A DNA stretch of 64,000 nucleotides from Spirochaetota bacterium (GTDB lineage: Bacteria; Spirochaetota; Brachyspiria; Brachyspirales; JACRPF01), in the NCBI GenBank assembly GCA_016214035.1, contig JACRPF010000009.1:62001-126000 (forward strand). The letters are read 5' to 3'. How positions within the stretch are numbered: the first letter of the stretch is position 1; every line of letters begins with the position of its first letter. Under the pieces are notes generated by a model, which was not told the DNA's origin, made no database searches, and saw nothing but the letters and a program-made list of their open reading frames with translations. A program made the position numbers and the translations under genes. Below are positions 10,114 through 30,030 of the stretch, in pieces.

Positions 10114-10447
10114 GGGCGCGCGGGCCGGAGGCACGCGTTTTTAGCTCGGGGAAAACTGTATTTCCTTGCGCCACGCGCTCCTCGCTATGCGCCATCCTTG
10201 GCGCCGCTCGGTACGGCCTCCATGCCTTCACCTCAGCCGTCCCTCCATGGACGGATTCGTCGCATTCGCGGCATCGTGCCGCTAGCGATTCATTGAGGAC
10301 CAGCTAGAGATTCTATATATGTAAATATGGTGTTATTGAAGCGTGGCGCAAGGAAACACATTTTTCCCCTTCACCAATCACGCGTTGGTAAGATGAATGG
10401 TAAAGGGTAAATTCTGGTTGCTGACCTCTATCGCTCGAACGCCGTTG
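10114..10447 (+). repeat. Palindromic dispersed element, copy 1
   Basis: The element runs from a GC-rich end (GGGCGCGCGGGCCGGAGGC) to the conserved end TCGCTCGAACGCCGTTG. The inner arms at 10161-10176 and 10341-10356 are perfectly complementary over 16 bp (TTTCCTTGCGCCACGC) and the pairing continues outward with GGGGAAAA/TTTTTCCCC. A central hairpin GCGGCA-TCG-TGCCGC lies at 10268-10282. Relative to copies 2 and 3 it carries about 47 extra bases near 10182-10232. No protein-coding signal is credible. Confidence 0.8.
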
Positions 10448-10534: not shown

Positions 10535-10800
10535 CAACGGCGTTTGAGCGTGAGGATAGCAATAACATAGGTATCTTTTACCATTATTTTTACCGCGCGA
10601 TTGGCGAAGGAGGAAATGTCTTTCGAGAAATCGGCAAATCTGTTTGAGCAACATAAGCTTGGTCGGAGAATTAGGCGTCTAATAGACAATAGTACCGAAT
10701 AGCTAAAGTATGCAATATGCGAGTTATTTGCCGATTTCGAGAAAGATATTTCCGCCGAGCAATAAAGCGCGACTACTCCCTCGCGACTCCGTCGCTCGCG
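10535..10800 (-). repeat. Palindromic dispersed element, copy 2, divergent, tail to tail with copy 1
   Basis: It begins with CAACGGCGTTTGAGCG, the conserved end in inverse orientation to copy 1. Its arms at 10612-10639 and 10726-10753 pair over 25 of 28 positions (ATTTGCCGATTTC..GAAAGA.ATTTCC), although their sequence differs from the arms of the other copies. The centre keeps GCAACA, CTTGG and GAATAGC from the copy at 22360 and has its own small nested hairpin (TTAG-GCGT-CTAA). The far end abuts the stop codon of the GGDEF-EAL gene at 10801. Between copies 1 and 2 (10448-10534) nothing else is recognised. Confidence 0.7.
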
Positions 10801-22359: not shown

Positions 22360-22640
22360 CAACGGCGTTCGAGCGACAGTGAACGATATTTAGAATTTAC
22401 ATCATCACCTTTCATCATTTACACGCGTTATGGCGAAGGGGAAAAATATGTTTCCTCGCGTCACGCTTCTGCAACAACACAGTCTTGGATTTAGTATCCA
22501 GTTTGTCATTATAGAATAGCAAGCGGCACGATGCCGCGGATGCGACGAATCCGTCCAAGGACGGACGGCGGAGGAGCGCGGGATGCGAGGAAATATATTT
22601 TTCTCCGAGCTGAAAACGCGCGCCTCCGGCCCGCGCCCCG
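22360..22640 (-). repeat. Palindromic dispersed element, copy 3
   Basis: It reads CAACGGCGTTCGAGCGA at the left and GCCTCCGGCCCGCGCCCC at the right, i.e. the reverse complement of copy 1. Arms at 22438-22467 and 22575-22606 pair with few mismatches around GAAAAATAT and TTTCCTCGC. The central hairpin GCGGCA-CGA-TGCCGC is at 22523-22537, and CCGTCC/GGACGG forms another stem beside it. It starts 27 bp after a stop codon and ends 4 bp before a -35 box. Confidence 0.8.
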
Positions 22641-22672: not shown

Positions 22673-22776
22673 TAATCGAGTCACGCTGTACTGGCGAACA
22701 AGGTGGAACACCACCGGGGAACGTGACCGTCTGCGCCGCTCGCCTGGGCAAAATAAAACGACCGATGAGGTGCCCG

Positions 22777-29740: not shown

Positions 29741-30030
29741 GCCGGGGTGGCGCCGGAGGCGTGGTTTTTGCGCTTATCGCTCGGGGAGAAATATATTTCT
29801 TCGCACCGCGTTTGCGCCTCAGCCGTCCATCCGTGGACGGATTCGACGCATTCGCGGCATCCTGCCGCTCGTACATATTTAATGTCAATTATAGCTATTG
29901 TAATACGATGTAATATTGATAATGAACGCGGCGCTCAGAAATACATTTCTCCCCTCACTGATCGCGCTGTTGTTTTGGATGATGGTATGGTAATTCCATG
30001 TTGTTGACGTCAAACGCTCGAACGCCGTTG
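29741..30030 (+). repeat. Palindromic dispersed element, copy 4
   Basis: It has the same order as copy 1: GCCGGAGGC end, arm, CCGTCC-ATCCGT-GGACGG, central hairpin GCGGCA-TCC-TGCCGC (29854-29868), second arm and CGCTCGAACGCCGTTG. The arms at 29783-29812 and 29925-29954 match over 26 of 30 positions (GGGGAGAAAT in both, CGCGTT in both). They share changes that copy 1 lacks. The element begins 13 bp after the stop of the zinc-ribbon gene at 30043. Confidence 0.8.

What the first reader, a model, noticed from the sequence alone, without database searches (positions are those of the whole stretch)
10535..10800. Divergent copy whose arms were rewritten but still pair
This copy lies tail to tail with copy 1. 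Its arms (10612-10639 and 10726-10753) pair at 25 of 28 positions, yet contain ATTTGCCGATTTC, absent from other copies. Its centre has a different small hairpin, while GCAACA, CTTGG and GAATAGC remain. It is the best single test that structure, not sequence, is conserved. The pair of copies could also form one large cruciform.
Basis: seen in the sequence. Interest (0 to 1): 0.6.

Follow-up and report, generated by a model that had tools for sequence, protein, structure and literature searches.

The report
Dispersed giant-hairpin repeat with covarying arms
This is one of about sixty copies of a repeated DNA element scattered between genes of a spirochaete genome, whose two arms keep changing letters yet stay complementary, which suggests that its folded shape rather than its sequence is what matters.

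Summary
The hairpin is real (25 Watson-Crick pairs, one G-T and one tandem G.A joint in 28 positions; fold z -6.7). It is not an oddity of the window: covariance models find 28 copies of its kind (type A) and 31 of the other kind (type B, the window's three other copies) in the same genome. In 18 aligned type-A copies, 24 of 32 arm pairs show double compensatory changes (covariation 0.434; shuffles 0.164; slid structures at most 0.171), at least 57 events on a loop-only tree. Corrections: the arm word is common in other type-A copies; two of three 'retained' words are chance; the pair faces 5' end to 5' end. Copies lie between unrelated host genes, mostly just behind stop codons, without orientation preference, and differ in presence from a relative at two sites. 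The same tip (CTGTTTGAGC, about 70 nt, GCGAGTT) on unrelated paired arms occurs in Bacteroidota, Lutispora and another spirochaete; no Rfam family matches. Best reading: a REP/MITE-like non-autonomous mobile element recognised as a folded single strand; the mobilising enzyme was not found.

The parts
10535..10550 (+). 5' module 'HEAD' (CAACGGCGTTYGAGCG), start of the element in this copy
   Evidence: read in 26 element copies; 105-110 nt before the type-A tip, 177-182 before the type-B core
10551..10593 (+). linker with ACCATTATTTTTACC, ending at the outer stem
   Evidence: a similar ACCACCATTCATT-like stretch recurs before the outer stem
10594..10599 (+). outer stem 5' side (CGCGCG)
10608..10639 (+). 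5' arm, 32 nt
   Evidence: in-register pairing and covariation
10625..10626 (+). tandem G.A joint, 5' side (GA in TTTCGAGAAA)
   Evidence: non-WC at these two pairs in 13 of 18 copies
10640..10649 (+). tip motif 5' side CTGTTTGAGC
   Evidence: near-invariant, also in other phyla
10650..10718 (+). apical loop, variable sequence
   Evidence: RNAalifold finds no conserved pairing inside it except GC/GC at its base
10719..10725 (+). tip motif 3' side GCGAGTT
10726..10757 (+). 3' arm, 32 nt (opposite G.A joint at 10739-10740)
10758..10771 (+). outer joint (AGCAATAAA) and outer stem 3' side GCGCG; 3' end of the element
   Evidence: similarity between copies ends about here
22433..22610 (+). type-B copy, hairpin core; HEAD at 22360-22375
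29779..29958 (-). type-B copy, hairpin core; HEAD at 30015-30030 minus

Best explanation
The copy belongs to a dispersed, non-autonomous, REP/MITE-like palindromic element of about 240 bp (5' module, linker, giant hairpin). Shown: many copies, two main exchangeable hairpin interiors (A, B) and a rarer third (C) on one outer frame, covarying arms, a fixed 3' end, placement mostly behind stop codons, presence or absence between relatives. Inferred: the element moved in trans, and the moving machinery (most plausibly an HUH/Y1-type single-strand transposase or another factor acting on one exposed strand) reads the folded plus strand, that is the tandem G.A joints and the CTGTTTGAGC/GCGAGTT tip, while the arm sequence is free as long as it pairs. 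Probably not moved by reverse transcription in this genome.
For: R1 finds 28 type-A places on the better strand at E<=1.3e-15 and R2 31 type-B places at E<=7.1e-21 in the own genome. Covariation: 92.0% of cells paired against 77.5% shuffled, 24 of 32 pairs with double changes, 0 of 500 shuffles reach the score, slid structures far lower; at least 57 WC-to-WC events over 23 of 32 pairs on a loop-only tree. One functional strand: G-T 62 against A-C 19 (p 9e-7; 27 A and 29 B copies) and G.A 78 against C.T 6. Neighbours that got a name are unrelated ordinary genes such as ftsK, chorismate synthase, hexokinase, NAPRTase and an EAL protein. Placement: convergent 21, co-directional 14 sense and 13 antisense, divergent 6 of 54; of 34 with an opposing downstream gene, 30 have its stop within 54 nt of the hairpin. 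Site comparison: the convergent lptB/TPR junction carries an element in G001 (429 nt between the genes) and about 10 nt without one in the own genome; the ftsK 3' end carries one in the own genome and none in G001. Three Y1_Tnp genes exist in the own genome; no RVT_1 match in 3 genomes.
Against: No transposase was found linked to the element: near the three Y1_Tnp genes the only R1 hit is a plain hairpin in L130. No orientation bias against GC skew (27 of 54 positive), which an HUH element that targets the lagging strand should show, though skew here is weak. No target-site duplication was established. Only two sites were compared with one relative, the direction of change is unknown, and at the ftsK site gene order differs. 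Copies other than tandem ones are diverged, so there is no sign of current activity.
Confidence: 0.55

Rival explanations
1. A structured RNA family: the plus strand is transcribed and the folded RNA (tandem G.A joints, tip motif) works in trans or as a 3'-UTR element, and spread is secondary.
For: Strand-asymmetric G-T and G.A tolerance and strong covariation; conserved tip across phyla; position behind stop codons.
Against: In co-directional gene pairs orientation is random (14 against 13), so no consistent sense transcription; no plus-strand promoter-like site just before this element; no Rfam match; neighbours unrelated.
Confidence: 0.2
2. Covariation is mutational, not selective: template switching between arms of an imperfect palindrome during replication keeps the arms complementary (quasipalindrome correction).
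For: About 40% of double-changed cells are transversion-type pair changes (31 of 77, my count from the table) and mismatch intermediates are few; the mechanism is in print (PMC8794818 and PMC7202029, search listing with start of abstract only).
Against: The tandem G.A joint, which such correction would erase, persists in 13 of 18 copies, and mismatches are strongly asymmetric, G.A 78 against C.T 6. Five stem pairs never vary. It explains neither dispersal nor the shared tip.
Confidence: 0.12
3. A transcription end or insulator hairpin kept by the host behind genes.
For: 21 of 54 copies lie between convergent genes and the hairpin abuts stop codons.
Against: No T-run follows the hairpin; the only terminator-like site at the element is a 5-pair one on the minus strand at its edge. 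Most copies are not between convergent genes, and the compared genome does without it at each of two sites.
Confidence: 0.1

Closest known systems
REP / BIME / REPIN elements mobilised by RAYT (TnpA-REP, HUH Y1)
   Same: Dispersed palindromes, often paired in opposite orientation, mostly behind coding regions, read as folded single strands with mismatched joints (PMC3733652 and PMC6006769, passages read)
   Different: Those are about 20-65 nt with a GTAG or CGTC foot; here the hairpin alone is about 180 nt with variable arms, and no linked transposase was found
Atypical secondary structures flanking Bacteroidota TnpA-Y1 subclass 2.6 genes (PMC6006769, passages read)
   Same: Structured repeats of Bacteroidota with copies elsewhere in the genome
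   Different: Their sequence is only in a figure that is not held, so identity with the present tip could not be checked
Bacterial MITEs such as ERIC/RU-1 (recalled; PMC2229807 and PMC2759123 search listing only)
   Same: Non-autonomous, 100-300 bp, hairpin-forming, intergenic
   Different: MITE ends are fixed sequences of a parent transposon (recalled); here arms differ between copies and covary, and no parent was found
TwoAYGGAY candidate RNA (PMC2864571, one table row seen)
   Same: Type-B interiors carry a hairpin with an ANGGA loop
   Different: No Rfam family matches type-A or type-B copies; the finding's copy has no such hairpins

Membership tests
GTAG-type REP element | short 20-65 nt hairpin | tested here: not met
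   Hairpin spans about 180 nt
GTAG-type REP element | linked RAYT gene flanked by the same repeat | tested here: not met
   Three Y1_Tnp genes in the own genome without the element beside them
REP-like element (how it works) | dispersed, intergenic, mostly behind coding regions, some paired copies | tested here: met
MITE | terminal repeats shared with an autonomous transposon | tested here: inconclusive
   Among 26 HEAD copies read none encloses a gene; transposase families other than Y1_Tnp were not searched
MITE | target-site duplication | tested here: inconclusive
   3' end is sharp but 5' ends come in several lengths, so none could be assigned
Known Rfam RNA family | match to a covariance model | tested here: not met
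   no match above a gathering score at the element
Retroelement (retron, group II intron derivative) | reverse transcriptase in the genome | tested here: not met
   0 of 3 genomes with RVT_1; the control search rings in 3 of 14 named genomes
Integron attC site | conserved core boxes and integrase | not tested
   considered from memory only

The most novel reading that the evidence does not exclude
A cross-phylum class of mobile elements recognised by folded shape alone: tandem G.A joints and a CTGTTTGAGC/GCGAGTT tip set on arms whose sequence is free, with exchangeable tip modules (A, B, C) and a loop of nearly constant length, spread through Spirochaetota, Bacteroidota, Bacillota, a candidate phylum and some phages.
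Probability: 0.35. Interest if true: 0.72.

Novelty: new variant of a known kind. Interest (0 to 1): 0.52.

Why it matters
Dispersed palindromes are usually defined by sequence, so a family whose arms are free to change while shape, joints and tip persist would escape normal repeat searches. It offers dozens of natural compensatory variants inside one genome, enough to test directly whether a mobile element, or its host factor, is recognised by folded shape. It may also connect unnamed long hairpins of Bacteroidota, Spirochaetota and phages into one class.

Tried and rejected
Rfam at gathering and relaxed thresholds: nothing at the element. Y1 transposase next to a copy: not found. Reverse transcriptase: none. 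Phage and plasmid collections by blastn: no match for three queries. String searches of the literature for the tip gave only listings of unrelated papers. Word searches gave REP/MITE and template-switch papers, none listed as describing this tip; any claim of absence from print rests only on these searches. tRNA/tmRNA origin of the 5' module: ARAGORN found none in four loci. R1 over 392 phylum genomes scored only 7 candidates a genome, so its 2 positives are a lower bound; over 100 genomes it gave 3, one of which (G062) is only a plain hairpin. GC-skew orientation: no bias. Considered from memory and dropped without a test: integron attC sites, IscB/TnpB guide RNAs, bridge RNAs.

Full report
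What was checked. The window copy at 10535-10800 contains a hairpin with 32-nt arms (10608-10639, 10726-10757). In register, 27 positions are Watson-Crick and one is G-T; two adjacent positions form a GA/GA joint. It folds far better than shuffled sequence as RNA (z -6.68) and as DNA (z -5.53).

It is one of many. BLAST of the copy gave 72 matches at E<=10 in the same genome (G000, 5.2 Mb, 22 contigs). A covariance model of 18 type-A copies (R1) places 28 type-A copies on their better strand, and a model of the three other window copies (R2) places 31 type-B copies. Two further copies are of a third kind, C. All share a frame: 5' module CAACGGCGTTCGAGCG (when not missing), a linker, an outer stem CGCGCG..GAAGG / CCCGAGC..CGCGCG, and different interiors. 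Type A ends in CTGTTTGAGC...GCGAGTT, with variants CTGTGCGAGC and TGTTCGAAC; type B in a GC-rich loop with two small hairpins. Spacing of the 5' module is fixed: 105-110 nt to the type-A tip, 177-182 nt to the type-B core.

Covariation. On 18 type-A copies, 92.0% of 576 cells pair (shuffled 77.5), 24 of 32 pairs have double changes, and the score 0.434 compares with 0.164 in shuffles and 0.048-0.171 in slid structures. Self pairing exceeds pairing between arms of different copies (28.9 against 24.3 of 32; 19 copies). On a tree of the loop alone at least 57 WC-to-WC changes are needed over 23 pairs, 15 pairs at least twice, so the signal is not one inherited change. The G.A joint is present in 13 of 18 copies.

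One strand matters. Over 27 type-A and 29 type-B copies the tolerated mismatches on the plus strand are G-T 62 against A-C 19 and G.A 78 against C.T 6. This favours a folded single plus strand, RNA or DNA, and does not tell which.

R2 missed the copy with default filters but aligned it from model position 1 to 185 at 31.1 bits with filters off; the opposite strand scored 16.7. Types A and B are thus related in the outer stem; the inner stem and loop look like exchanged modules rather than slowly rewritten arms.

Where copies lie. With crude ORF calls for 54 of 55 elements, 21 sit between convergent genes, 14 and 13 in sense and antisense between co-directional genes, and 6 between divergent genes. 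Of 34 with an opposing downstream gene, 30 have its stop within 54 nt of the hairpin; in two of the four exceptions another element lies between, in two an ORF call overlaps the element. Similarity between copies stops sharply after the 3' CGCGCG, while the 5' end comes in several forms: without the 5' module, at CAACGG, about 60 nt further up, or with a further upstream hairpin repeat. Of 20 neighbouring proteins scanned (18 next to copies in the own genome, two from Lutispora), the named ones are ordinary and unrelated to each other; many got no name.

Comparison with a relative. G001, the other genome of the family that was searched, has one R1 match, a hairpin with a related tip (CTGTGCGAGC) on quite different arms between a TPR-like gene and lptB (gene names by my reading of the proteins). 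The orthologous convergent pair in the own genome (lptB 82% identical) is separated by about 10 nt. Conversely the copy behind ftsK in the own genome has no counterpart behind ftsK in G001, where the next gene differs. The direction of change cannot be told from two genomes.

Wider spread. The pattern CTGTTTGAGCA N52-82 ATGCGAGTT hits 39 stretches in genome contigs. Of these, 23 carry a stem of at least 9 pairs at the tip by my script; the other 16 include chance hits and also three (L093, L122, L113) that look related by eye or by R1. Positives include Saprospiraceae, Formosa, Lutibacter, Lutispora and the spirochaete RS_9_51. Spacing between the two tip motifs is 74-83 nt although the pattern allowed about 65-95. 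Among 13 loci searched with R1, Lutispora, Formosa, Lutibacter and a Moraniibacteriota contig give full-length matches. A short-loop form occurs in 12 IMG/VR stretches, in three of them between genes that look like the P2 gpM and gpL genes (my recognition from the translations, not a database result). The phylum of the window's genome is inferred from G051, listed as same phylum and identical in contig lengths to 'Spirochaetes bacterium RS_9_51'.

Interpretation. Dispersal, modular interiors, placement behind genes and presence or absence between relatives fit a REP/MITE-like non-autonomous mobile element. Its conserved parts are structural, so whatever handles it probably reads the folded strand. 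HUH Y1 enzymes are the known kind that does this; three Y1_Tnp genes exist here and reverse transcriptases were not found. But no Y1 gene is linked to the element and no replication-strand bias was seen, so the enzyme is an inference. Template switching between arms may contribute to the compensatory changes but would erase the G.A joint. An RNA function remains open.

Noticed in passing
window 22675-22756 (+): ZMP/ZTP riboswitch (RF01750, 49.7 bits), which begins about 65 nt after the type-B copy at 22433-22610.
   Followed up: no
window 10144-10374, 22433-22610, 29779-29958 and other type-B copies: Type-B interiors carry a hairpin with an ANGGAN loop (CCGTCCANGGANGGACGG), which resembles CsrA-type binding loops (resemblance recalled, not tested); a similar hairpin segment also matches places elsewhere in the genome.
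   Followed up: partly
L024, L047, L040, L044 upstream of the 5' module: A further repeat with its own hairpin (such as AGCTCCTTTCCCCGCTGTGCAGGGAAAGGAG) precedes the 5' module in about nine copies, so longer composite forms exist.
   Followed up: partly
L117 3340-4250 and L123 3000-4200 (Lutispora BIN23): Two divergent very long hairpins side by side at two loci, with compensatory differences between the loci even in the outermost arms (by eye).
   Followed up: partly
L138, L140, L142, L144: Short-loop hairpins are followed by a hairpin whose loop (ATCAAG or TTCAAG) is complementary to a stretch just before it (CTTGAT or CTTGAA): a possible pseudoknot (by eye).
   Followed up: no
L128, L130, L132: Three Y1_Tnp genes in the own genome; around the one in L128 a different palindrome (CAAGGGGCTAAAGCCCCTTG) looks like a REP.
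   Followed up: no
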